Below are positions 29,041 to 46,962 of a stretch of 64,000 nt of DNA, piece by piece (position 1 is the stretch's first letter; every line of letters begins with the position of its first letter). Location: assembly GCA_012862575.1 (NCBI GenBank), contig BLSF01000013.1, forward strand, positions 186,001 through 250,000, given 5' to 3'. Under the pieces are notes generated by a model. It searched no databases. It saw only the letters and a list, made by a program, of their open reading frames with translations, and was not told the origin of the DNA. The stretch comes from Parietichytrium sp. I65-24A. Lineage: Eukaryota > Sar > Bigyra > Thraustochytrida > Thraustochytriidae. Both the position numbers and the translations under genes were made by a program.

Positions 29041-30291
29041 ATGGAGGAGAAGGAGGAGGAGGAGCGCGATGTGAAGGCAACGCGGAAGAGTCAGAGCATG
29101 GCGACGGTGTCGAATAAGAGGCGGCGCGACTCGATTTCAGACGCGCGGCTGTGTGAGCTGAGAGGGAAAAGACGGAGTCGAGGTGTTTTTGGGACAGTGG
29201 AAGGTGCAGAAAGTTTTGTGCGAGCGCTGCGGGGCACGGTACTGATGAGCTCTGACGGTGACTTTGACGACGGCTCCTCGAACATTGGCAAGATATTCTG
29301 CGCAAGATGGCTCGAGCAAAACCGGGTTCTGTTGGGCGGTAAGTGTGGCAACATCGTGGCCTTCGACCCGTTTGACGCTCTCAAGTGCAGGGAATTCCAG
29401 CCACCGAGAGTCGAGCTGCCCCGAACAGACTCAGTCTCGCTATGCAGCGAGCAAGGTGGCGTTCACTCCATCCAAGTCTCTCCGAATGGCGAGCTCTTTG
29501 CGTCTGCTGGAGTAGGGGCTCACTCCGAATGCGTGGGTATCTTCCAGCGCTCCTCCCTCAAGCCCATGTCCGTTTCGCCTCAGGAGCACACCGATTGGAT
29601 TTTTGGTCTAGACTGGTTGTCAGACGCAAGTTTTATAACGGGCGGCCGCGATGGTCAAGTCATACTTTGGAAGGTTGACGAATCGGCTGGCACTTCTCGA
29701 GCAGTATGCAAGATTGCTAAGGATATCGCCACGGGAGCTTGCGCAAGCAGAGTGCGAGACTGTAGTGCTTTCAAGCCTACCGGCGGCGGGGACCGGGAGC
29801 GGTTTGTTACCCTCTGCCCTGGTGGCCAGAGCGGGGCTATCAAAATGTGGAAAGCTGCAGAGTCCGACTTGAGACGTGAAAGGGTATTCGCCGTTCCCGG
29901 AAGCTCGCGTTTTACGCCAATTGCCCCTTGCATCAAAACTTACGAAACGGATGAAAACTTATTTTGCGCAGCTAGAGGCCACTACGTGTACGTATACGAC
30001 TCTCGCGAGCGAGGTGACTCTCCTAGCCTCTCAATGTTCACGAGCATTGCCGGGCAAGATGCTTCAATGCGCTCATTGTCCGCCAGGGGGAATTTTATTA
30101 CTTGCGGAAATGCTAATGGTGTCATGTCCTTTTTGGACAATCGAAAGCCCGATGCCGTCCTCTCGCGGCTCTTTCAGATGGACGATGCTATCTTTGCTCA
30201 TGATTGGGATCCACTCGGGTCGACATTGCTTTACGCTGGAGGGGGTTTCAACGTCTCCAGCAACAACAAGTTTGCCGCGGTGTTATATTGA
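29041..30291 (+). CDS. DCAF12: DCAF12-like WD40 protein (CUL4-DDB1 substrate receptor family)
   Basis: 416 aa, single exon (human DCAF12 is 453). The basic N-terminus (KRRRD near 27-31) is followed by a seven-blade WD40-type propeller. Diagnostic stretches match DCAF12: GGVHSIQVSPNGELFASAG, HTDWIFGLDWLSDASFITGG with RDGQVILWKVD, and near the end SMRSLSARGNFITCGNANGV and DPLGSTLLYAGGGF. DCAF12 docks on DDB1 in CUL4 ubiquitin ligases and recognises proteins with acidic C-terminal degrons. Here the N-terminal DDB1-binding helix is plausible but not clear, so the ligase role is inferred by family. Alternative: another WD40 scaffold. It shares its upstream region with the K+ channel. Confidence 0.72.
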   Translation: MEEKEEEERDVKATRKSQSMATVSNKRRRDSISDARLCELRGKRRSRGVFGTVEGAESFVRALRGTVLMSSDGDFDDGSSNIGKIFCARWLEQNRVLLGGKCGNIVAFDPFDALKCREFQPPRVELPRTDSVSLCSEQGGVHSIQVSPNGELFASAGVGAHSECVGIFQRSSLKPMSVSPQEHTDWIFGLDWLSDASFITGGRDGQVILWKVDESAGTSRAVCKIAKDIATGACASRVRDCSAFKPTGGGDRERFVTLCPGGQSGAIKMWKAAESDLRRERVFAVPGSSRFTPIAPCIKTYETDENLFCAARGHYVYVYDSRERGDSPSLSMFTSIAGQDASMRSLSARGNFITCGNANGVMSFLDNRKPDAVLSRLFQMDDAIFAHDWDPLGSTLLYAGGGFNVSSNNKFAAVLY

Positions 30292-30592: not shown

Positions 30593-32239
30593 TCATACGC
30601 ATTTGTAAAACATGATTTGTGCAACTCCGGAGCCTCCTTGCCCACCGAGGGAGCCCGAGCCAAGATACGGCTGATCGGAGAGGAGATCAATATTTTGACT
30701 TTCTGAAGGTGGGTAGATGTAGCCAAGGTCGTCAAAGCTTGGGGGATCTTGAACGTTGCCAACTGTCAAGACATCGATTCCAGTATAATTTCCGCTTTGC
30801 GAAACCCAGGAGCTACCCCCTCCACCACCTGCGTAGCTCGTGTCTGAGCCGCCGCCGTAGTAACCGCCGCCGCCTCCACCGGCACTTACAGTCCCGTTGA
30901 CAAGAGTTCCATTCACGTACTCTGGAGCAGGTGCTGATGCACCGGCCAAGTATCCTGCGTTTGGGCCCCCGGCGCTCTGTGTTCCGCCCTGCACCATCGG
31001 AGCCCCTTGAAGTAAGTATTTCATGCAAACTCGCCCAGGCTCACCGGAGACGCCTCCACCAGCCCCGCCGTGCGCGGGGATTTCTTCGTCACAGTCTGGA
31101 TTCCCAGCGCCTCCGCCACCACTCGCGATGGACACAAGATAATCGTTCACGTAGACCCTAGATGACCCACCGGCAGAACCACCGTTCGTAGACCCGGCCC
31201 CGCCGTCGGGAAAAGAAGTACTCTCGCTCTCTGGCAGCCCTCCGCGCCCAATTTCGACTTTGAGTGTGTCTCCATCTACGAAATCAAATCTCGCTCTCAC
31301 GTAGGCGCCAGGGCCACCAGCGCTCTGTACGGTTCCGTTTGTGGAACCTCCACCACCAGCTCCGAGCATGCGCAACTCTACGCCAATCACGCTAGACGCG
31401 TCCACGGACGAAGAAATCTGGACGGTTTGAGCGCTACCGGGAAAATTTGCGCGAATAGTGTGATTATCCAAGTACATGATACTGAGCCCTGTACAAGAGG
31501 CGGTGATGGGTGACGTTGGCTGCGGAGTTGGGGAAGAGGATGGAGAGTCGCTTGGAGTTTGCGTTGGCGCCCCAGTGATGAGCGGGGTTGGTGAGACAGT
31601 GGGCCTTGGAGTTGCAAGCGCGTCATTCCGCATCTCGTGTGTGAGAACCAAAACGCACGCCGGGATTGCGACCGCAGCGAGCGCAAAAATTATGATACAC
31701 CAAAGCTTGGGATTCCGCCATCCAATCACGGTCGTCCCATTCGCGATGGGGACCGGCTTGCTACTTCTCCTCGCACTACTCTTTGATGTCAAACTCCGTC
31801 TGGCGAGTCGATTGAGCGAGATAATACGATCAATCATCATCGTCGCCTTTGGTTCACGGAGGCTGAGTGGAATAGCAAGGCTTGTCTTGATCATAGGTAC
31901 CAGATCTGATGGCATACGATTTGTGTAGAGGTAGAGCATGGGAGCGTCGTTCATGCATTTGATCCCCCCGCATCGAAGGTCCGTCTCATAGATGATGCAG
32001 TATGGCTTGCGTTCTCGCTGGCATCTCTGAAGCTGTCTGTGCACAAACGCGCAATCCAAGAGCTTTTTTGTCAGAAACAGTACCACGGACTTTGATGGAA
32101 TTCCGTCCTCGCTTGCGTTCGCTTGCATCACCACCTGGTACCCCTTCTCTCGAACCATGGCGGCCAGTCCCGTGGCTCGTGGCACGCCATCCTTCTCCAC
32201 GAGAAGGAGCACGTCGCATTCTAAGATGCCGCCGATCAT
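30593..32239 (-). CDS. Membrane protein: TIR-like cytosolic domain, one TM helix, Thr/Pro stalk, glycine-rich ectodomain
   Basis: 548 aa from ATG 32239 (an in-frame GTG lies 30 bases upstream). Residues about 5-125 resemble a TIR fold: a first strand CDVLLLVEKDG, a middle SKSVVLFLTKKLLDCAFVHR segment like TIR strand D/helix D, then KPYCIIYETD. One hydrophobic helix follows at about 180-200 (WCIIIFALAAVAIPACVLVL), preceded by basic residues, so the N-terminus should be cytosolic (type II). Residues about 210-245 are a Pro/Thr/Ser stalk; the remainder is outside and Gly-rich (GAGGGGSTNG, GGGGGGYYGGGSD), with several N-glycosylation sequons, like the glycine-rich region of ALK-type receptors. 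It may sense a ligand and signal through the TIR-like part. TIR identity rests on pattern only; NADase residues were not confirmed. Confidence 0.6.
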   Translation of the reverse strand: MIGGILECDVLLLVEKDGVPRATGLAAMVREKGYQVVMQANASEDGIPSKSVVLFLTKKLLDCAFVHRQLQRCQRERKPYCIIYETDLRCGGIKCMNDAPMLYLYTNRMPSDLVPMIKTSLAIPLSLREPKATMMIDRIISLNRLARRSLTSKSSARRSSKPVPIANGTTVIGWRNPKLWCIIIFALAAVAIPACVLVLTHEMRNDALATPRPTVSPTPLITGAPTQTPSDSPSSSPTPQPTSPITASCTGLSIMYLDNHTIRANFPGSAQTVQISSSVDASSVIGVELRMLGAGGGGSTNGTVQSAGGPGAYVRARFDFVDGDTLKVEIGRGGLPESESTSFPDGGAGSTNGGSAGGSSRVYVNDYLVSIASGGGGAGNPDCDEEIPAHGGAGGGVSGEPGRVCMKYLLQGAPMVQGGTQSAGGPNAGYLAGASAPAPEYVNGTLVNGTVSAGGGGGGYYGGGSDTSYAGGGGGSSWVSQSGNYTGIDVLTVGNVQDPPSFDDLGYIYPPSESQNIDLLSDQPYLGSGSLGGQGGSGVAQIMFYKCV

Positions 32240-35064: not shown

Positions 35065-38000
35065 CTATGCGCTCGCGTCGACGAGAACGGACGGCGACGA
35101 CGAAGATGAGGACGATGCTAGCAAGCTGCGCGTCAAATTCCGAATGTCCTCTGCTTCGCCCACGTGCGTGTCCCTGATTCGATGCATAAGCTCGATCAAA
35201 TGGTGCCTTCGGATGAGAATGGCCATTGTCTTTGGCGATGACTCCACCATCCCCACGAGAGCCTTTAATGCGGCCTTGACGACCTTCGGCTTATCTAGGT
35301 ACATCTCCAGTGTTTGCACAACAGGAATGTAAAGCCTCCGTTTGACGAGGTGCCCTCTGCACACTTCAAAAGCGGAGAGTGACGCCAGCACTGTGCATCC
35401 TTTTTCCACGACGAACTCGCTGTCGGTGTGGGCTTCGAGTGCTTTTATGACGCTGTCCAAACTCGAATTGTGAACAAGCTGCAGGGCACGATCTTCACTG
35501 GCTGCGAGGCGACTGAAAAAACCGCAGGCTTTTTCCTGGACAAGAGCATTCTCAATGTTTGTCTCCATCGCGTTTCTAACAAGCGCAGGACAATCCATGT
35601 CAAACAAGATCTGGTGAGACACTGAAGAGGCTGCAAGCGCGCACAGGAAACCGCACCCCTTGACCTGGATGGTGTCGTGCTCAGGGAACTCCGTCAGAGC
35701 GGCCACCACCGAATCTAGCGCCCCTGAGCTGATTAGAGCAGATGCGCTTCCACTGTCTAGCGCTAGGTTCCAAAGTACGGCGCAACACAATTGCAAAACC
35801 TCTGCGTCCTGATCATGAACCTGCATGACGGATACGATCACTTTTGCAGCCCCGGTTCGAGACAAGGACGACTTGTTCTCCTTCGCATATGATATTCTCC
35901 ACAACGCAACACAGGCCTTCTTGAGCACGGAGGGCTCGGGCTGTGCTCTAAGAGCATTGAGAAGGCTGTCAGCCGCTCCTAACCGCATCAACCTGACCTG
36001 GATATCCTTTGACTGCGCAATCCGGCCAAGAAACATGCACGCACGATCTTGCACAAGGGACGCCGTAGGGTGTCTTCGCATAGCCCTCAAAACCCCCTCC
36101 GGAGCTCCCAGGTCCATCAAAGTAGCGTTTTCTGGGCCGCGCTCTGCCAAGTTGCTAAGGATTCCGCATCCGTGCTGCTGAATAAGCGGAGTCTCCAAAT
36201 GCGTCTTCATGCACTCTAAAACTAACTGTGGGGTGTTCGTTCTCATCCACTCGCCCAAATGAGAAGTGAGACTAGAAAGCAACCAAAGAGCGCCAAAGCA
36301 TTTAATTACCACCCTCTCCTCCATCGAATGCTGTTGCAGAGTGGTGGTCAGCTGCTCACCTACACCACATTTCATCATGTTTGATTGCAAGTCTTCTTCA
36401 GAGCCCGCCAGGACCCACAACAGAGCACAAGCACCATGTTGTAAACGAGACTGATGCGGATGAGTTTGCATCGCAGCCAAAATGTTGTCGACTGCGCCTA
36501 GGCGGAGGATCCTTGCACGGTTCTCTTCCATCAATGCCAGGTTGCATAGAGCGCCGCACGCATACTGCTGGACCAAGTCATCCTGTAAATGCGCTTCCAT
36601 ACCAGAGAGAATGCTGTCAATGAGCCCTTGGTCAACCATTCGACCTTGGTTCTCTCTCGCGAGTGCGAGGTTTCGAATTGCGGGAAATGCTACCTTTAAG
36701 ATGTCAGCCTTCTCCACATTTTCGTCTACGATGCTTTGCAAAAGGCTCGCAGCACCTAGATTGACGAGGGACACACGATGCGTTTCGCTCGAGAGCGAGA
36801 GGTATCGGATCGTGTTACAAGCATGGCGAAGCACACGCGATACACCTGGGTACTGGCTTCCTGCCGCTAGTACTTCCTGGACAAGCCCGTATGAAAACAC
36901 AGCCTGTTCTGCCTGATTATCGCAAGCCGCAATACTGGATGCTGCAAAACAGCCTGCTTGAGCGACCAACGCGTTCTTGCGATTTCTGGACATGATTGTG
37001 ACTGTGCCGCGCAAGCAAGTGTCGATCTGCTGAGCCAGGTTCTGCTGAGTTGCTACTGATGCAATAACCTGTTTGTCAATCTGCAAAAGATATCCCACCG
37101 TTTGCAATACCCGTGAGCCTAACCCAGGTTTGGTATCCTTACTGTTCAGCCGTTTCCCCAATACATCGAGAGCACCGTGCTCCAACGCTACCTTGCGGAC
37201 GAGCTTTACTTGCTCAGAAGCTTGAGACGCATGGTCCGAGTCTGCCTTGACAAGATGGATCAAGCGATCCAAACCATTTTCGAAGGTGCTCGCTTTTCGA
37301 AAAATATTCACTGCTGCTACGATTGACTCCTTGGTTTGACGGACAGGCTGAGCACCGTTGGGAAGGACCTCAAGTATTGTCCCAGCCCCGGAGCTGGCTC
37401 GCATAGATCTTCTCCCTGCTGAATTGTGAAGAGCGGAGAGTTCGTTCTTTGAAAACCCGACGTGCAAAAACGACAGCAATCCGCGCATAACCCTCGTAGA
37501 CCGCCTCTTGGAAATTTTCGCATCTAGCTCAGTCAGCACATCCTTAATATGAAGGCGATTCTGGTAGGACTGACTCCAGCAAGCTTTCATCAAGGAGACC
37601 ATCCAGGGCTTGATGTTCTTGCCGCGGTCGATTCGCGGTCGCTTACCTTTTTTGATGGTGGTAGCGACCCATTGTCCGTCTTCGCCTTCCAGGCCCCATG
37701 GGATTTGACGGTGTGCTAGCTCCCAGCACAATATCCCGAAAGAGTAGACGTCTGCTCTTGGCGTCCAGAGAGCAGGTTCTTGAATTACTTCCGGGGCGAC
37801 GTGCGCCCAGTGATAACCGACAGCTGCCGGCTGCGAAGGATAGCGAAGGCCTCCCATGTCCCCAAATCCAAAGTTGCCAACTTTGACTGAGCCCATATCC
37901 GCGCTCAAATAGACGTTCCGCGAGCGGAGGTCCCCGTGAATCACATTGTGTTCGTGCAAGTATGCGATGCCAGACGCCACTCCCTTGGCCAGTTTATTAA

Positions 38001-39027
38001 TACCTTCGGGGGATATAACGTGCTCAGTATCGTGCAAGAGGAAATCTAGACGGAACTCGGAGCGCTCCGAGACAAGAACAAGCTCGTTTTCAAGATATGA
38101 AAGGCCATAAACCTTGCAAACGTTTTTGTGACTGAGGGTTGGGAGCTTTGCTCTGCAAACTCGCAGCTCTTCGTCGAATGCAGTGTAGATTTTGCTTGGT
38201 AGTCTCTGGATGGCTCGTCTGATCATCACCTTTTCTTTGCCAAACGTTCCGGCGAAAACCTCCGTGAATGCCCCACTCTCCAAGCTCTTTGCGCCGAGGT
38301 CCACTTCAAGCGAGGCTGGAGGAAGGGTAATGTCTTCGTCACTGACATCGATGCGCGAAGACTTGACAATGTCTTGTAGCAGAACTGAGAGAGTTTCGCG
38401 AGGATCGCTTAAGGCTTCTCGAACATTTTCTTCATCTGTGGAGTGGCATAACTCGATAAATTTTTGGGAACTCTCACTCTCGAAAGCCGGTTTTTGAAGC
38501 CCTTCCAACAATTCGTTCAAGTCATCCGCAAAATCTGCAAGATCCTCCTGTTCGTCCTTCTTCAGCTGCAACAATTTGGGCAATAGCTCGCTCAAACTTT
38601 TAATTTGGCGCCGAGAAGAGGATCGTCTGCGATTTACTGATTTTCTTCTGTCTGCCTCGCATAAAAAGAGCTCCGAGGCGCACTCCTTCAAAAAATCAAA
38701 GGCCTCCTCCATCACGTGGCCCGCCGTATCCTGCTGCCGAAATCGAATCGCCATTCGGTGTACCGGGCACATCACATGTGCAATGCGGCCAGCCCTCAAG
38801 AGCTTTGCAAAATGCAACTCCAGCGATTCCAAAAGCTCCGCATGCTGCGCCGCTGCGGCTAGCTCTGAGGCCTGTCCCTGCTGACCACTGGGCTTCTCGT
38901 GGTTGTGCTGATCCAAGCTTTCGAGCTGCATTTCCAGCACCTGCATCGCATCTCGCACACGCGCGCAGCTATGCCGAAGCATCTGCGCACCCGCAAACTC
39001 CTGGGCCGCTCCATGGCTAAACATCAT
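35065..39027 (-). CDS. ARM-repeat protein with TKL-type pseudokinase domain
   Basis: 1,320 aa, single exon. Residues 1-140 are helical. A kinase-like domain covers about 240-510: Gly-rich loop SGAFTEVFAG, then VMIRRA where the ATP-binding Lys is Arg270, HGD in place of HRD with Asp366 kept (VIHGDLRSRN), and NFG in place of DFG (Asn385). APEVI, DVYSFGILCWELAHRQIPW and KACWSQ are TKL-like. Loss of both Lys and DFG-Asp suggests a pseudokinase that binds or scaffolds rather than phosphorylates. From about 570 to 1,300 run roughly 14 armadillo-like repeats (pattern GAVDNILAAMQTHPHQSRLQ, GACALLWVLA), a binding solenoid. No catalytic or targeting motif lies outside these. I recognise no named ortholog. 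Confidence 0.85.
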   Translation of the reverse strand: MMFSHGAAQEFAGAQMLRHSCARVRDAMQVLEMQLESLDQHNHEKPSGQQGQASELAAAAQHAELLESLELHFAKLLRAGRIAHVMCPVHRMAIRFRQQDTAGHVMEEAFDFLKECASELFLCEADRRKSVNRRRSSSRRQIKSLSELLPKLLQLKKDEQEDLADFADDLNELLEGLQKPAFESESSQKFIELCHSTDEENVREALSDPRETLSVLLQDIVKSSRIDVSDEDITLPPASLEVDLGAKSLESGAFTEVFAGTFGKEKVMIRRAIQRLPSKIYTAFDEELRVCRAKLPTLSHKNVCKVYGLSYLENELVLVSERSEFRLDFLLHDTEHVISPEGINKLAKGVASGIAYLHEHNVIHGDLRSRNVYLSADMGSVKVGNFGFGDMGGLRYPSQPAAVGYHWAHVAPEVIQEPALWTPRADVYSFGILCWELAHRQIPWGLEGEDGQWVATTIKKGKRPRIDRGKNIKPWMVSLMKACWSQSYQNRLHIKDVLTELDAKISKRRSTRVMRGLLSFLHVGFSKNELSALHNSAGRRSMRASSGAGTILEVLPNGAQPVRQTKESIVAAVNIFRKASTFENGLDRLIHLVKADSDHASQASEQVKLVRKVALEHGALDVLGKRLNSKDTKPGLGSRVLQTVGYLLQIDKQVIASVATQQNLAQQIDTCLRGTVTIMSRNRKNALVAQAGCFAASSIAACDNQAEQAVFSYGLVQEVLAAGSQYPGVSRVLRHACNTIRYLSLSSETHRVSLVNLGAASLLQSIVDENVEKADILKVAFPAIRNLALARENQGRMVDQGLIDSILSGMEAHLQDDLVQQYACGALCNLALMEENRARILRLGAVDNILAAMQTHPHQSRLQHGACALLWVLAGSEEDLQSNMMKCGVGEQLTTTLQQHSMEERVVIKCFGALWLLSSLTSHLGEWMRTNTPQLVLECMKTHLETPLIQQHGCGILSNLAERGPENATLMDLGAPEGVLRAMRRHPTASLVQDRACMFLGRIAQSKDIQVRLMRLGAADSLLNALRAQPEPSVLKKACVALWRISYAKENKSSLSRTGAAKVIVSVMQVHDQDAEVLQLCCAVLWNLALDSGSASALISSGALDSVVAALTEFPEHDTIQVKGCGFLCALAASSVSHQILFDMDCPALVRNAMETNIENALVQEKACGFFSRLAASEDRALQLVHNSSLDSVIKALEAHTDSEFVVEKGCTVLASLSAFEVCRGHLVKRRLYIPVVQTLEMYLDKPKVVKAALKALVGMVESSPKTMAILIRRHHLIELMHRIRDTHVGEAEDIRNLTRSLLASSSSSSSPSVLVDASA

Positions 39028-40500: not shown

Positions 40501-43500
40501 TCATTTCAACCAATCCGCGTTCAAAACGTCTTCTTTCTGAGTTTGTTTTTCCTCTTGAACGAGGTCCATGAGTTCTGACGAAGTTGCAGTCGAAGCTAGA
40601 AGCCTGTTGAATTTGCAGATAAGACGCTTTCTTGCAGGGGTCACCGCAGATTTAAAGTGCAGCAGAATTGCTTTACCGGCTGTAAAAGCCTCTTTCGCCT
40701 GCAAAAGGTCTCCAGAGTTAAGATAGGCTGCGCCAAGGCTCTTATACGCAAGGATAAGCTCATCAGAGTCTGCGCTGCTATCGTCCTTGAGAATGTTTAC
40801 GATGCGATTCCAAATTCTAATCACCATGGCGCTTTCGCCGGGCACCTGCGAGAGGCAATCGATTGCTTCGCGGTAGCACTGAATGGAAGGGAGTTTGCTG
40901 TCACTATTACGAAAGCAGTCTGCAGCCAGCTCGAAATTATGAGCCGCATCTTTAAAAGATTCCAAGTCTTTAAAGAGCTTGCCCATGGCTTTTGCAGTAA
41001 CGCATACAAGTTTGCCGTACTCTCCTTGCAAGACGCGAGCATTGTGAAGGACCACCACAAACTCTTCGCAAGCTTCCTCAGGTCGGTTCGCCTTTCGATG
41101 CAACTCCGCAAGAGCAAAGTGGGCTTCCGTAACCTCCAGTGAGTCATGGGTCCATATTGACTCAGCAAGGGCAAGATGCTGCTTAGAGAACTGGATCAAC
41201 TCCCTTCGGTATTCTCGAAGCAGTGCACTCGACGAGCCACCGCCAAATTCCTTCCGTTTCCTCGTTCTCAACATAGATATGGCCGCAAGTTCTGCACGCT
41301 CCCTCGATAGATTCTTTCGCTCCTTTGTCTCCGAGCTGGATTTGGACTCTGGCTCCGCAAGCATTTGCCTGACGATTGTTTGAATTGCAGCTTTCCCGCT
41401 TCTGGAGCACAAATATCGTTCTATCATTTCCGATAGCTTTTCCTCCGTAGCTCTCTCTTCAAGCGTGACCTGAAGCTCTCGAAGTTTTGACATGCACCAT
41501 GTTATACGAGTCAGAGATGCATGTGCCCCGTTGTGATCGGCAGCCATCATCTTGAGTTCAAACGCAGCTTCAAGATTTTCGCTAGCCATGGCGACAGTTG
41601 ATTTGCTGAGCCTTTTTTTACTGTTGCTGGCAAAGATCATGGCAGCCAAACCAAGGTTCATCTTGCACTCTGCTTCGAGATCATCCTGAGAGAAGTCTAC
41701 GGCGTGGTCCTTCAACAAGGTGAGAAACTCCTCCCAGGAAATTGTGTCGTGCTGTTTGAGCGAGGACACCAGAGTAGGAAAATGCTTGAATCGGGAAGGC
41801 ATGAATGAGTCGATGCTGAGGGCGTTTCCTAGTGAGCTGCAGTCACACATGTGATCAACACCTTTCAATGCTGAGATGACAGAGTCCTCCGTTCCGATAG
41901 ACACAGCTGTGGACGTGCGGCAGGTGACAAATATTGCGCGCAAAGTATTCAGTTCGCTCTCCGAGAACCAATCTTCCAGAGCTTGTCTCAGAAACTTTTC
42001 GAAGCCCTTTTCTCTGCGAAATGCATGTATCAAATCCTCCCAGGAGAACTCTGATTTGGTGCTCTTTTCAGAATTGTTGCTCAACGGAAAGCCATTCAAG
42101 TATCCATACAATTCATCTTCCGGCTCAGTAGCCTGGAGCGCTCTCCGGAACGCTTGGAATGGAAAGTCGCCATCGAGATAGCACTGCTCCAAGAGGGTAG
42201 TACACAGCGCTTGCGCTGAGACTTTCTTCTGTCCACACTTTATTTGAGCAGACGCAAAGCTACTGCGAAGCATGGAAAGGGTAGTCTCTGGATGCTCGTA
42301 ATCATCAACGAAACGAGGAATTGGTTCGCTATCTTTCGCTCCTCGTGGAGACTCATCTTGCTCTCGTATGGCTGAGATAAGGCTCAACACGCGCGTCGAA
42401 ATTTCCTTCGCTTCCTGTAAGTTGCCGCCAAGGGCTTGGAATCTCAAGAGCCTTAAGAATTCCTGCACAACAAATCCCGTTGGGAGTTTGTTTTGTCGCC
42501 TGTCTAAAACGGCTTTCTTCAACGTTGGAGCGGTCTTTGCGGACTCGTGGTCAAGCAAGAGCTGCTCTACATAGCTCACAAATTTTGCTTGCGCGTCCAC
42601 CAACTTTGGTGAGAATCCGTTCGGAAGCCCAGTGCACATGGCCTCCAGTCTACATTGGAATTCAAGACGTTCAATTCGAATTTGCTCTCGTTGAACGTCG
42701 CCCTCAAGTTTGGCTCTGAGGAGCTCTTCGTCCTCGCTTGATTCACTGTGGGAGGCCAATTGTTTTGAGCCTTGGGAGCCCTTGCGTTTACCTTTAACCA
42801 CAAAATTCCGAACCAAAACGTTGTTCTTGTGGTGCAAAGGGACTTGCTTCCGAGGGTAATCGTTGCAAGTTTGGGCAGCGTAGCCGAGATATTTAACGAT
42901 GGCATTGGTTTTCGTGGCGCTTATCAGGCGCTTCTCTTCCTCCGAAAGCGTTTTGCTTTGAAGCAAACCTTTCGTAGTTTGTAGTATACCGGTGAAATTA
43001 TTTTGCTTTCCCTTTTTCCCATGTGGAACGACTTTGTGATTTTCCACCTTTGAGATTCCTTTGGAGGGGTGCTTGACCACAACTTGCTTGACATATCCTG
43101 CGCTGGTGTAAGAGTGCCGCACGAACGCGCCGTTTCGAAGCACATCTTGCTCTTCGCGCTCGGCTTGAGCACGCGCTTCGGCTCGTCTCTCCTTTTCCTT
43201 CTCCCCAAGCGTGTACCCGGCAACAAACGGACCATGTTTGGCGACGTCGTGAAATGCTATCGTTTCGTCTGGCGAGGTACTCAAGGTGGTGGCCCCGTCT
43301 CCTGCTGGTGTGTCAACGCCTTCTCTAGTAAACCTTCCACGCGAATCAAAGTCCTGATCGATAAAACGCATGAATTGGACATAGTCTATGAACCCACCGC
43401 CTCTGGCACCACCGAAAGATGCCATTACCCTTTCCACATCCTCCTCGGGCATTTTGGGAACCCCAATGTGAATCAAGCCTTGACAAAACTCATCTCGAGA

Positions 43501-44463
43501 CAAGAGCCCATCCCTATCAGAGTCAAAATGGTCAAAGCTCTCGCGAACGTCGACACCGTGTTCCGCTGCGACGTGTATCCTTGACCTTATGGATTTGATT
43601 AATTGCGCCACCCTTTTTTCGCCGGCTGTACTCTCTGAGTCAACAAAAATCCCATCGATATCAACTTTTGACTCTAGAGCACTTGTGCACGAAGTCTCTG
43701 ACGAATGACTTGAAGCGAGACTCGGCATTTCGTTCGCGAATGATGGGCTCAGACCATCGATTTGCAGCTTTACGGTGTGCCCTCCGTCCGTGGAAAAGGG
43801 GAATTCCTGAATCGCACCCACCTTCTCTTCTCCTATGTATGATTTTGATTCGAGGCACTGTGATTGCGTATCGGATAGTTGGGAGCTGGACGACGTCAGT
43901 GTTGGGTCGATAATAGACAAAAAAGTGACATAATTCACCATCTCCGGTGAATCTTGCTGCTTGCCTTCTGGCAAGCCTCTCGCGGTCCTCTGCTGCGGCT
44001 GAAGAAATCTTCGCTCCAGCGCTGCCATCTGCTCTTCATCCAGATTCAAGTTCAGGGTAGTGATTGCCTCCTCAAAATTTACTTGAGGAACAAGACCTTC
44101 ATAATACACATCCTTTGACTGGAGCTGAGCTTTCAATCGCTCAAATTCCTTTGGGTCGTGAACTCTCTCTTGCACGACATGCAGAAGAGCAAGCTCGAGG
44201 TGACTCTGTCGGAAATATAGGACGGCTTTTGATAAGAGCTTGACCCTCTCACGTCTGCAAGTGGGTGCCTTTTCTCGGTTCAATACCTGCACAAGCTGAC
44301 TTGCGACTGAAGCTCTTTGCCGGCTTGATTTTGTCGCAATCTTGAGCTTTTTCAGGGCCAACATACCATCCTCCACTGATACAGGAAACTTATTGCAACT
44401 CTCCTTCAGCGCCGCCATGCAAGTCTCGGGGTGCTCCCAGCATGCTATCCGCAGCTCCTCCAT
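40501..44463 (-). CDS. Large EF-hand and TPR-repeat protein, function unknown
   Basis: 1,320 aa, single exon. One canonical EF-hand loop, DSDRDGLLSRDE at residues 314-325, is followed by a degenerate second loop (FGGARGGGFIDYVQF). An earlier degenerate EF-like pair lies at about 125-190. The middle (about 430-1,090) is helical and highly charged without a domain I can name. Residues about 1,100-1,290 hold four or so TPR motifs (HFALAELHRKANRPEEACEE, AAHNFELAADCFRN, AYLNSGDLLQAKEAFTAGKA). This suggests a Ca2+-responsive scaffold. It is divergent from the STK16-like kinase (933 bp apart). TPRs in flagellar or trafficking proteins fit, but no localisation signal is visible; no ortholog recognised. 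Confidence 0.8.
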   Translation of the reverse strand: MEELRIACWEHPETCMAALKESCNKFPVSVEDGMLALKKLKIATKSSRQRASVASQLVQVLNREKAPTCRRERVKLLSKAVLYFRQSHLELALLHVVQERVHDPKEFERLKAQLQSKDVYYEGLVPQVNFEEAITTLNLNLDEEQMAALERRFLQPQQRTARGLPEGKQQDSPEMVNYVTFLSIIDPTLTSSSSQLSDTQSQCLESKSYIGEEKVGAIQEFPFSTDGGHTVKLQIDGLSPSFANEMPSLASSHSSETSCTSALESKVDIDGIFVDSESTAGEKRVAQLIKSIRSRIHVAAEHGVDVRESFDHFDSDRDGLLSRDEFCQGLIHIGVPKMPEEDVERVMASFGGARGGGFIDYVQFMRFIDQDFDSRGRFTREGVDTPAGDGATTLSTSPDETIAFHDVAKHGPFVAGYTLGEKEKERRAEARAQAEREEQDVLRNGAFVRHSYTSAGYVKQVVVKHPSKGISKVENHKVVPHGKKGKQNNFTGILQTTKGLLQSKTLSEEEKRLISATKTNAIVKYLGYAAQTCNDYPRKQVPLHHKNNVLVRNFVVKGKRKGSQGSKQLASHSESSEDEELLRAKLEGDVQREQIRIERLEFQCRLEAMCTGLPNGFSPKLVDAQAKFVSYVEQLLLDHESAKTAPTLKKAVLDRRQNKLPTGFVVQEFLRLLRFQALGGNLQEAKEISTRVLSLISAIREQDESPRGAKDSEPIPRFVDDYEHPETTLSMLRSSFASAQIKCGQKKVSAQALCTTLLEQCYLDGDFPFQAFRRALQATEPEDELYGYLNGFPLSNNSEKSTKSEFSWEDLIHAFRREKGFEKFLRQALEDWFSESELNTLRAIFVTCRTSTAVSIGTEDSVISALKGVDHMCDCSSLGNALSIDSFMPSRFKHFPTLVSSLKQHDTISWEEFLTLLKDHAVDFSQDDLEAECKMNLGLAAMIFASNSKKRLSKSTVAMASENLEAAFELKMMAADHNGAHASLTRITWCMSKLRELQVTLEERATEEKLSEMIERYLCSRSGKAAIQTIVRQMLAEPESKSSSETKERKNLSRERAELAAISMLRTRKRKEFGGGSSSALLREYRRELIQFSKQHLALAESIWTHDSLEVTEAHFALAELHRKANRPEEACEEFVVVLHNARVLQGEYGKLVCVTAKAMGKLFKDLESFKDAAHNFELAADCFRNSDSKLPSIQCYREAIDCLSQVPGESAMVIRIWNRIVNILKDDSSADSDELILAYKSLGAAYLNSGDLLQAKEAFTAGKAILLHFKSAVTPARKRLICKFNRLLASTATSSELMDLVQEEKQTQKEDVLNADWLK

Positions 44464-45396: not shown

Positions 45397-46962
45397 ATGG
45401 CGACGGTAGCTGTCCTGTATACCTTCGCGAGCGAGTTGCGAGAGTACGCACTGCAGAGAGAGGAGAAAGGTGCCTCGGGGAAGAGCTCTGATCAGGTGAG
45501 GGCGAATGCGTACTCAATGCGGCTAAAGGATGAGGAGATGTTCAAAGACCTTCGAAACAAGAGCAAATATTATGTACAGGGAGAGGTGATCATGAACAAG
45601 TTTGTGTTTGACAGTGCAGAGGACTGGAGGTTTTTTGTACTTCAGGACGTTCCCAAGTCTAAGGGTTTCATGTGGCTTCTGCTTGAAAAAGATGAGCAAA
45701 TTGCCGTTGAGGATAACCTTATTCAGATGCAGGTAGTCGGAAAGGACGAGTTCCCCGTGCTAGCACATGATCCAGAAGAGGTCTGGTGGCAGTCCAAGAC
45801 CGTGGACGCAGAGCAGGGAGCGGATAGAAGCGCCTCAGGCGCTCGTAGTGGTGGCCAGCATCACAGAGCGTCGAGCGCTGGTGGCACTGTCCCAAATGTG
45901 GCAAACCTTGGAATAAGTAGTAAAGCTGTCCAAGACAAACTTCAGAAGACCTCCCAGGAAGTCGCCGCTGGTCTCAGCGGATTTGCCAAATGGGCGAAGA
46001 AAGGCCTCGCGGCTGCGACGGACGCAATGTCTATGACAGAGACCCTAAAACTCCAAAACCGAACCGTGACCATACGGAAGAAGATCGCCGAGGGAGGCTT
46101 TAGCGAGGTATACATGGTGAAGTGCAATAATTCCGGGGAAGACTTTGCCCTCAAACGGTGCTTGGCACACTCTAGAGAGGACTTGACCGCGCTGAAGCAA
46201 GAGATTGATCTGCACCACCGCGCAAAGAGCGAGTATGTCATGAAGCTAATAGATCACGCTGATGAGCAGAGTAATCGTGTGCGTGGGGCTAGGGATATCT
46301 TGATGCTCTTCCCTCTGTATAACGACGGGTCGCTCTTCGATCAGATGGAAGCTGCAGTTAAAGAGAATCGGTCCTGGCCATACCCAGAAGCTGCCGCAAT
46401 TTACTTTTCTATCGGCTTGTTGAATGGCCTGAGCGCTGTGCATGAAGCCGGCTTCGCCCACAGGGATATCAAACCTCACAACGTGCTATTAGCCCTGAAC
46501 AAAACTCTGCCGAACGGGGTGCAGCTTCCTCAGGACTATAAAGCCATCACTCCGGTCTTGATTGACTTGGGTTCAGCCGCTCCGCGGAAAATACATATTA
46601 CTTCACGAAAGGAGGCTCTCCTTGCAGCTGATGAGGCAAGCGTCAAATGCTCGGCTGCCTTTCGTGCGCCCGAGCTCTTCGATATTCCGAGCGTACCATA
46701 TACTTTGACAGAGAAGGTGGACATCTGGAGTGTTGGAACAACGATTTACTCGATGACATACGGCAAGTGCTACAGCCCATTTGAGCATCCGACCTACGGC
46801 TTGCAAACCTTGGCGATTCGGCAGGCCAAGGTCAGCTTCCCAGATAGTTCACAGTACTCTGACTCTTTCAAGAAAATATTGCAAAAGATGCTCGCCAAAG
46901 AGCCGGAAGATAGGCCGTCGATTCAACAGCTAATCGGGGCATTTGAAAAGATCTCGTCTTAA
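45397..46962 (+). CDS. STK16-like (NAK family) Ser/Thr protein kinase
   Basis: 521 aa, single exon, ATG 45397. Residues 1-160 hold an uncharacterised domain (YYVQGEVIMNKFVFDSAEDW) not part of human STK16 (305 aa). Residues about 160-205 have an amphipathic helix (LSGFAKWAKKGLAAATDAM). The kinase domain runs about 210-520: Gly-loop EGGFSEVY, Lys253 in FALK, catalytic HRD 355-357 in FAHRDIKPHNVLL, and DLG (390-392) in place of DFG, the form also seen in STK16. The STK16-specific run of a Ser-Arg-x-Ala motif before FRAPELF is present. All catalytic residues are intact, so it should be active. STK16 kinases act at the Golgi and in trafficking. Confidence 0.85.
   Translation: MATVAVLYTFASELREYALQREEKGASGKSSDQVRANAYSMRLKDEEMFKDLRNKSKYYVQGEVIMNKFVFDSAEDWRFFVLQDVPKSKGFMWLLLEKDEQIAVEDNLIQMQVVGKDEFPVLAHDPEEVWWQSKTVDAEQGADRSASGARSGGQHHRASSAGGTVPNVANLGISSKAVQDKLQKTSQEVAAGLSGFAKWAKKGLAAATDAMSMTETLKLQNRTVTIRKKIAEGGFSEVYMVKCNNSGEDFALKRCLAHSREDLTALKQEIDLHHRAKSEYVMKLIDHADEQSNRVRGARDILMLFPLYNDGSLFDQMEAAVKENRSWPYPEAAAIYFSIGLLNGLSAVHEAGFAHRDIKPHNVLLALNKTLPNGVQLPQDYKAITPVLIDLGSAAPRKIHITSRKEALLAADEASVKCSAAFRAPELFDIPSVPYTLTEKVDIWSVGTTIYSMTYGKCYSPFEHPTYGLQTLAIRQAKVSFPDSSQYSDSFKKILQKMLAKEPEDRPSIQQLIGAFEKISS

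What the first reader, a model, noticed from the sequence alone, without database searches (positions are those of the whole stretch)
30593..32239. TIR-like / TM / glycine-rich ectodomain protein: possible undescribed receptor plan
A cytosolic TIR-like domain, one signal-anchor helix with basic residues before it, a Thr/Pro stalk and a glycine-rich, sequon-bearing ectodomain occur in one 548-aa frame. Seen: the segment order, hydrophobic helix and Gly-rich runs. Known: TIR domains signal in immunity or cleave NAD+, and ALK-type receptors have a glycine-rich ectodomain. Inferred: ligand sensing outside, TIR signalling inside. I know no described receptor with this order.
Basis: partly seen in the sequence, partly recalled or inferred. 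Interest (0 to 1): 0.85.

Follow-up and report, generated by a model that had tools for sequence, protein, structure and literature searches.

The report
Membrane protein pairing TIR, ALK-like domains
A single-celled eukaryote encodes a membrane protein with a worn-down immune-type (TIR) domain inside the cell and a glycine-rich domain like that of the ALK receptors outside, a combination that suggests an unfamiliar receptor plan, although its function is untested.

Summary
The 548-aa frame (30593-32239, minus strand) is real and ordered as described. Its ectodomain is not mere low complexity: it matches Pfam ALK_LTK_GRD at E=1.8e-15, and six shuffles match nothing. One helix follows a basic linker, so a type II topology (N-terminus inside) is likely. 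The N-terminal domain has no Pfam TIR match, but a profile of nine TIRs from the same genome scores it 24.6 bits against at most 8.2 for shuffles: a very divergent TIR. It lacks about nine residues around the BB loop, and the catalytic Glu is Gln. Of 29 other TIRs readable there, 28 keep Glu; the exception, L037, is also anchored by one predicted helix. Best reading: a type II, Toll-like receptor whose inactive TIR scaffolds contacts with other TIR proteins. The glycine-rich module is not ALK-specific: a second gene here carries it without a helix, and a fungus is reported to have it. Structure predictions were too poor to help. Ligand, partner, expression and relatives in other protists are unknown.

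The parts
30593..32239 (-). whole coding sequence, 548 aa, no intron needed
31820..32239 (-). residues 1-140: divergent TIR domain, about nine residues lost around the BB loop, catalytic Glu replaced by Gln (residue 69)
   Evidence: profile 24.6 bits against a shuffle maximum of 8.2; hhalign probability 93.6; alignments; no Pfam TIR match
31706..31849 (-). residues 131-178: basic cytosolic linker (11 K/R, 1 D/E)
31637..31705 (-). residues 179-201: transmembrane signal-anchor helix
   Evidence: Kyte-Doolittle maximum 3.01, positive-inside rule
31502..31636 (-). residues 202-246: Thr/Pro/Ser stalk
   Evidence: 60% S+T+P; weak matches to Pro/Thr stretches of other proteins of this genome
30596..31501 (-). 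residues 247-548: glycine-rich ectodomain with five sequons and four Cys (249, 383, 405, 547)
30791..31375 (-). residues 289-483: stretch matching PF12810 ALK_LTK_GRD
   Evidence: E=1.8e-15, model 12-203 of 243; found again in the whole-genome search, E=1.6e-13

Best explanation
This is a type II, single-pass surface protein built as a receptor. Shown by sequence: an N-terminal TIR-derived domain, a basic linker, one hydrophobic helix, a Thr/Pro stalk and an ALK/LTK-type glycine-rich domain. Inferred: the glycine-rich domain, perhaps closed by a Cys249-Cys547 disulfide and N-glycosylated, binds a ligand or a neighbouring surface and clusters the protein. Clustering brings the cytosolic TIRs together. 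These probably cannot cleave NAD+ (Glu to Gln, BB-loop region shortened) and act as a scaffold that recruits other TIR proteins. The likeliest partners are the Glu-bearing Roc-COR-TIR proteins, whose TIRs form the same subfamily. It would work like a Toll-like receptor turned end for end.
For: GRD at E=1.8e-15, over the curated cut-off, with 0 of 6 shuffles matching. A profile of nine TIRs built without the window gives 24.6 bits; of 2000 shuffles, 1383 were reported and the best had 8.2. hhalign gives probability 93.6, E 2.1e-7; of 737 open frames scored, the window's frame has 21.5 bits, the 28 frames above it all lie at TIR_2 places, and the best frame outside such places has 5.0 (places by my arithmetic). 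The tree puts it with the nine TIRs of that profile (93/87, below the program's star), on a very long branch. Topology signal is strong. The catalytic Glu is kept in 28 of the 29 other TIRs with a letter in that column; the window (Q) and L037 (K) lack it, and each of these two has one predicted helix.
Against: Pfam finds no TIR in the window protein; the best match of residues 1-140 is a sub-threshold Chp1_domII (16.2 bits, cut-off 27). Some accepted TIR_2 places score lower with the profile than the window, two of them (L014 10.8, L009 6.9) near the shuffle maximum, so the profile is narrow. Another TIR protein with predicted membrane helices (L014, two) keeps the Glu. Many of the 29 TIRs are near copies, so the Glu count is not of independent cases. 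Codon usage does not support residues 131-246. No relative of the whole protein was found, so conservation is untested. No expression, ligand or partner data.
Confidence: 0.5

Rival explanations
1. A surface adhesion or coat protein: the glycine-rich domain glues the cell to a surface or matrix, and the degenerate TIR only anchors or sorts the protein and sends no signal.
For: The TIR has lost the Glu and part of the BB-loop region and sits on a very long branch. The GRD family occurs in fungal proteins whose function could not be guessed (PMC4859500 passage) and in a second gene here without a predicted membrane helix.
Against: The TIR-derived frame has stayed open and its codon usage fits coding. 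It still aligns to the TIR profile from residue 41 to 139.
Confidence: 0.25
2. The N-terminal domain is another small alpha/beta domain (for example of the Chp1 domain II kind) whose likeness to TIR is coincidental; the protein is then a type II GRD protein with an unknown cytosolic domain.
For: No Pfam TIR match at E<=1; a sub-threshold Chp1_domII match to residues 9-60, 16.2 bits with cut-off 27. Identity to the genome's TIRs is 16-22%. tblastn finds another TIR place only at E=0.19. No TIR among the 50 Foldseek rows shown.
Against: 24.6 bits with the in-genome TIR profile against at most 8.2 for shuffles. Frames outside TIR_2 places score at most 5.0. The aligned stretch runs over most of the domain, 41-139 or 17-140.
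Confidence: 0.17
3. An enzymatically active membrane TIR that cuts NAD+ or makes a nucleotide signal through residues other than the usual Glu.
For: TIR domains are often enzymes (established knowledge), and 28 of the 29 other TIRs with a letter in that column keep the Glu.
Against: The window has Gln there and is shortened in the BB-loop region.
Confidence: 0.06

Closest known systems
Toll-like receptors (LRR-TM-TIR)
   Same: single-pass membrane protein with a cytosolic TIR and an extracellular recognition domain
   Different: Type II order with the TIR at the N-terminus, no LRR match, glycine-rich ectodomain. PMC6040629 (passages) reports the LRR-TM-TIR order as unique to choanozoans in its data set.
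ALK/LTK receptor tyrosine kinases
   Same: glycine-rich domain of the same Pfam family outside the membrane
   Different: No kinase, EGF-like or MAM match. The ectodomain is C-terminal and the cytosolic domain is TIR-like. PMC10605310 (passages) lists the ALK/LTK parts.
Roc-COR-TIR proteins of the same genome (L011; by eye also L022, L026, L033, L034)
   Same: nearest TIR subfamily
   Different: The TIR follows Roc and COR-A (tested in L011 only) and keeps the catalytic Glu; no hydrophobic segment at 1.7 or more in the frames seen except 1.79 in L033 (several frames are cut).
TM-TIR protein at L037 (C28)
   Same: TIR of the same subfamily, one predicted helix, catalytic Glu lost
   Different: helix before the TIR, short N-terminus, no glycine-rich domain in the frame
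TIR-STING fusions
   Same: TIR joined to an unrelated sensor in a few eukaryotes
   Different: STING is a cyclic dinucleotide sensor (PMC10732462, passages) and intracellular (recalled); here the other half is extracellular

Membership tests
TIR domain family | match to a curated TIR profile | tested here: not met
   no PF13676 or PF01582 match at E<=1 for the window protein; its place is not in the genome-wide lists
TIR domain family | homology to accepted TIR domains by a more sensitive method | tested here: met
   24.6 bits against at most 8.2 in shuffles; hhalign 93.6%; tblastn alone is weak, E=0.19 to a TIR_2 place
TIR domain family | flavodoxin-like fold | tested here: inconclusive
   AlphaFold single sequence pLDDT 43; no TIR among the 50 Foldseek rows shown of 84
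NAD+-cleaving TIR enzymes | catalytic Glu in the helix after strand C (place recalled; PMC6040629 passage, says a conserved Glu is needed in SARM1) | tested here: not met
   Gln at the aligned column
Toll-like receptor | LRR ectodomain, TM, C-terminal TIR | tested here: not met
   no LRR match at E<=1; TIR is N-terminal
ALK_LTK_GRD domain family (PF12810) | score over the curated cut-off | tested here: met
   58 bits, cut-off 24.5; shuffles 0 of 6
ALK/LTK receptor family | cytosolic tyrosine kinase | tested here: not met
   no kinase match in the protein at E<=1
ALK/LTK receptor family | fold of the TNF-like and glycine-rich unit and binding of an ALKAL-type cytokine | not testable with these tools
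   model pLDDT 34.7; no binding data
Type II single-pass membrane protein | one helix with the positive side at the N-terminus | tested here: met
   by hydropathy and charge only; no dedicated topology predictor was run

The most novel reading that the evidence does not exclude
An undescribed class of protist surface receptor: an end-for-end Toll-like receptor in which an ALK-type glycine-rich ectodomain is wired to a catalytically dead TIR, which switches on Glu-bearing Roc-COR-TIR (LRRK-like) effectors by TIR-TIR contact. In this lineage the single-pass membrane-anchored TIRs would have become scaffolds while the cytosolic ones stayed enzymes, as a parallel to animal TLRs and SARM1.
Probability: 0.28. 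Interest if true: 0.78.

Novelty: new variant of a known kind. Interest (0 to 1): 0.55.

Why it matters
If right, it shows membrane TIR signalling outside the animal and choanoflagellate lineage with a different ectodomain and the opposite topology, and a loss of TIR enzyme activity on membrane receptors there too. It would also support the view that the ALK-type glycine-rich domain is a broader extracellular module than ALK itself, which bears on what the domain first recognised.

Tried and rejected
Tried without result: PDB sequence search with the whole protein (0 matches at E<=1), with the ectodomain (0 at E<=10) and with the two-sequence GRD alignment (10 matches; the top five are antibody single-chain fragments, best E 0.0025, which I take as matches of glycine-rich stretches). 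PDB search with alignment A1 retrieved TIR structures (77 sequences at E<=1, 60 shown), but eight of its nine rows are accepted TIRs, so this says little about the window's row. Relatives in viral contigs and in bacterial and archaeal contigs: none confirmed; the GRD patterns were glycine runs that fit 599 and 589 stretches. NCBIfam gave one sub-threshold match to the stalk (9.6 bits, cut-off 1100) and PADLOC none. Rfam on the window: nothing at gathering scores.

Considered and rejected: active NADase (Glu lost, BB-loop region shortened); low-complexity artefact (shuffle controls); ALK relative (no kinase; the GRD is in other kinds of protein); a missing N-terminal exon for the TIR (strand A, by eye, begins within ten residues of the ATG, and an in-frame stop lies 13 codons upstream; an upstream exon cannot be excluded without transcripts).

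Script error: one search read minus-strand loci on the wrong strand; its numbers are not used, and one search replaces it.

Papers: search listings and passages only, no whole paper. Ten paper searches were made. Three returned no paper. The others list only the best rows (15 of 58, 12 of 23, 8 of 16, for example). No listed title or abstract start names a TIR and GRD combination; bodies were not read through. This is one open-access library, so absence from print is not shown.

Full report
What is there. The minus-strand frame 30593-32239 encodes 548 residues from an ATG, with an in-frame stop 13 codons upstream. The window lies in a 42.5-Mb genome of 172 contigs (G000, contig C13); a eukaryotic small-subunit rRNA match on C16 shows that it is a eukaryote. 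The genome size, the Pro/Thr stalks and the 3' end of its rRNA made me think of a labyrinthulomycete, but that is recall, not a test. PMC12258536 (passages) gives 30-60 Mb for thraustochytrids, which fits and proves nothing.

Coding. Other frames of the stretch hold 11-22 stops. Codon usage trained on five neighbouring open frames favours this frame over the whole gene and over residues 1-130, 247-398 and (narrowly) 399-548, but not over the short linker (131-202) and stalk (203-246), whose composition is biased.

Ectodomain. Pfam gives ALK_LTK_GRD at 289-483, E=1.8e-15, 58 bits with a cut-off of 24.5, and Gly_rich_2 at 7.1e-6. To test for composition I made ten shuffles and scanned six, three full shuffles and three that keep every glycine in place; none hit any family at E<=1. 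The whole genome has two GRD places, this one and one on C15. The C15 frame is 1809 aa and has no predicted membrane helix (best hydropathy 1.25); its scanned 923-aa part has TRAF-type zinc fingers (PF02176, over the cut-off), the GRD, and a sub-threshold WW match. PF12810 rang in 0 of 14 control genomes, PF21722 in one, Methanosarcina acetivorans. PF12810 is reported in three proteins of a nematode-infecting fungus with no hint of function (PMC4859500 passage). So the module is broader than ALK. The four ectodomain cysteines (249, 383, 405, 547) would allow a disulfide that ties the ends of the domain together; this is inference.

Membrane helix and topology. Residues 179-201 have the only strong hydropathy peak (3.01). 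The 48 residues before it hold 11 K/R and 1 D/E, the 45 after it 2 K/R and 3 D/E. By the positive-inside rule the N-terminus is in the cytosol. Five sequons lie in the ectodomain against 1.88 expected (p=0.026), a weak support; two lie in the part taken as cytosolic. No dedicated topology predictor was run.

N-terminal domain. Pfam has no TIR match; the best match is a sub-threshold Chp1_domII. The own genome holds 38 TIR_2 places, 37 of them over the cut-off. A tblastn of residues 1-133 found one other place, weakly (E=0.19), and that place overlaps a TIR_2 place, L023. A profile of nine TIRs of that kind, built without the window, scores the window domain 24.6 bits; of 2000 shuffles, 1383 were reported and the best had 8.2. 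hhalign gave probability 93.6. Against 737 open frames from the window and the loci then held, the window frame scored 21.5 bits; the 28 frames above it all lie at TIR_2 places, and the best frame outside such places had 5.0. The nine profile members are among those frames by construction, and some accepted TIRs score below the window (L009 6.9, L014 10.8), so the profile is narrow. I conclude that this is a TIR of a very divergent kind, with 16-22% identity to eight of those TIRs. AlphaFold on the single sequence gave pLDDT 43, and none of the 50 Foldseek rows shown (of 84) is a TIR; with so poor a model this neither supports nor refutes.

State of the active site. I aligned the window with 30 TIR places of the 38; the other eight were not used. 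The catalytic column has Glu in 28, Lys in L037, Gln in the window, and no letter in L035, a cut frame. Many of the 28 are near copies of each other. About nine residues around the BB loop are missing in the window and four in L037. L037 has one helix by hydropathy (3.03) followed by a TIR; its frame has a short N-terminus and K/R after the helix. So the two single-helix TIR proteins seen are the two that lack the Glu. I noticed this after the fact, on two cases. L014, with two predicted helices, keeps the Glu. Many frames were cut at locus ends, so other helices may have been missed.

Relations. The tree joins the window with nine TIRs, six of them a cluster (82/85) with L023 and the Roc-COR-TIR frames. 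The support of the ten-row group is 93/87, below the program's star; the smallest starred set that holds the window has 12 rows. The program warns that the window's branch (3.83) is too long for a safe place. L011 was tested for Roc and COR-A; for L022, L026, L033 and L034 I judge the likeness by eye from their sequences. COR-A was also found in L008, L016 and L025, whose TIRs fall in the other part of the tree.

Mechanism. The parts fit a type II surface receptor whose ectodomain clusters upon binding and whose inactive TIR recruits other TIR proteins. In animals TLRs signal by TIR-TIR contact with adapters (PMC6040629 passages), and LRR-TM-TIR is reported there as unique to choanozoans in that data set. 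ALK and LTK carry an EGF-like, a glycine-rich and a TNF-like part outside and a kinase inside (PMC10605310 passages). This protein is neither. The paper searches, made in one open-access library and seen as listings only, named no such combination. No eukaryote collection was on hand, so relatives in other protists may well exist.

Verdict. Observation confirmed; interpretation partly supported. A new variant of a known kind (membrane TIR receptors), with a real chance of being a new class. Interest is limited by the single gene, the weak TIR signal and the absence of any functional or comparative evidence.

Noticed in passing
L008-L037 (G000, 30 of 38 TIR_2 places): The genome has a large TIR repertoire: COR-A with TIR (L008, L011, L016, L025; Roc itself found in L011), ankyrin-TIR (L019, L029), TIR with an NPHP3_N NTPase (L017, the only one of its 12-row tree cluster that was scanned), and others.
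   Followed up: partly
L037 1309-2022 (C28): Short frame with one strong hydropathy peak (3.03) followed by a TIR that has Lys at the catalytic column.
   Followed up: partly
L053 / L007 (C15): Second GRD gene, 1809-aa frame without a predicted membrane helix, with TRAF zinc fingers; EF-hand-like and ankyrin-like stretches in its first half were seen by eye only.
   Followed up: partly
35065-39027 (-), 40501-44463 (-), 45397-46962 (+): Neighbours: a kinase with armadillo-type repeats, a protein with EF-hand matches and weaker TPR matches, and a second kinase.
   Followed up: no
29041-30291 (+): WD40 protein, best Pfam match the DCAF12 propeller (2.1e-22), convergent with the finding and about 300 bases away.
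   Followed up: no
L004 (C45): By eye: signal-like start, Pro/Thr-rich ectodomain, one helix and a kinase-like stretch, so receptor-like kinases with similar stalks may exist here; not tested.
   Followed up: no
L067 (C16): The small-subunit rRNA match runs to the end of the locus, and a stretch that looks by eye like a copia-type retroelement lies just upstream.
   Followed up: no
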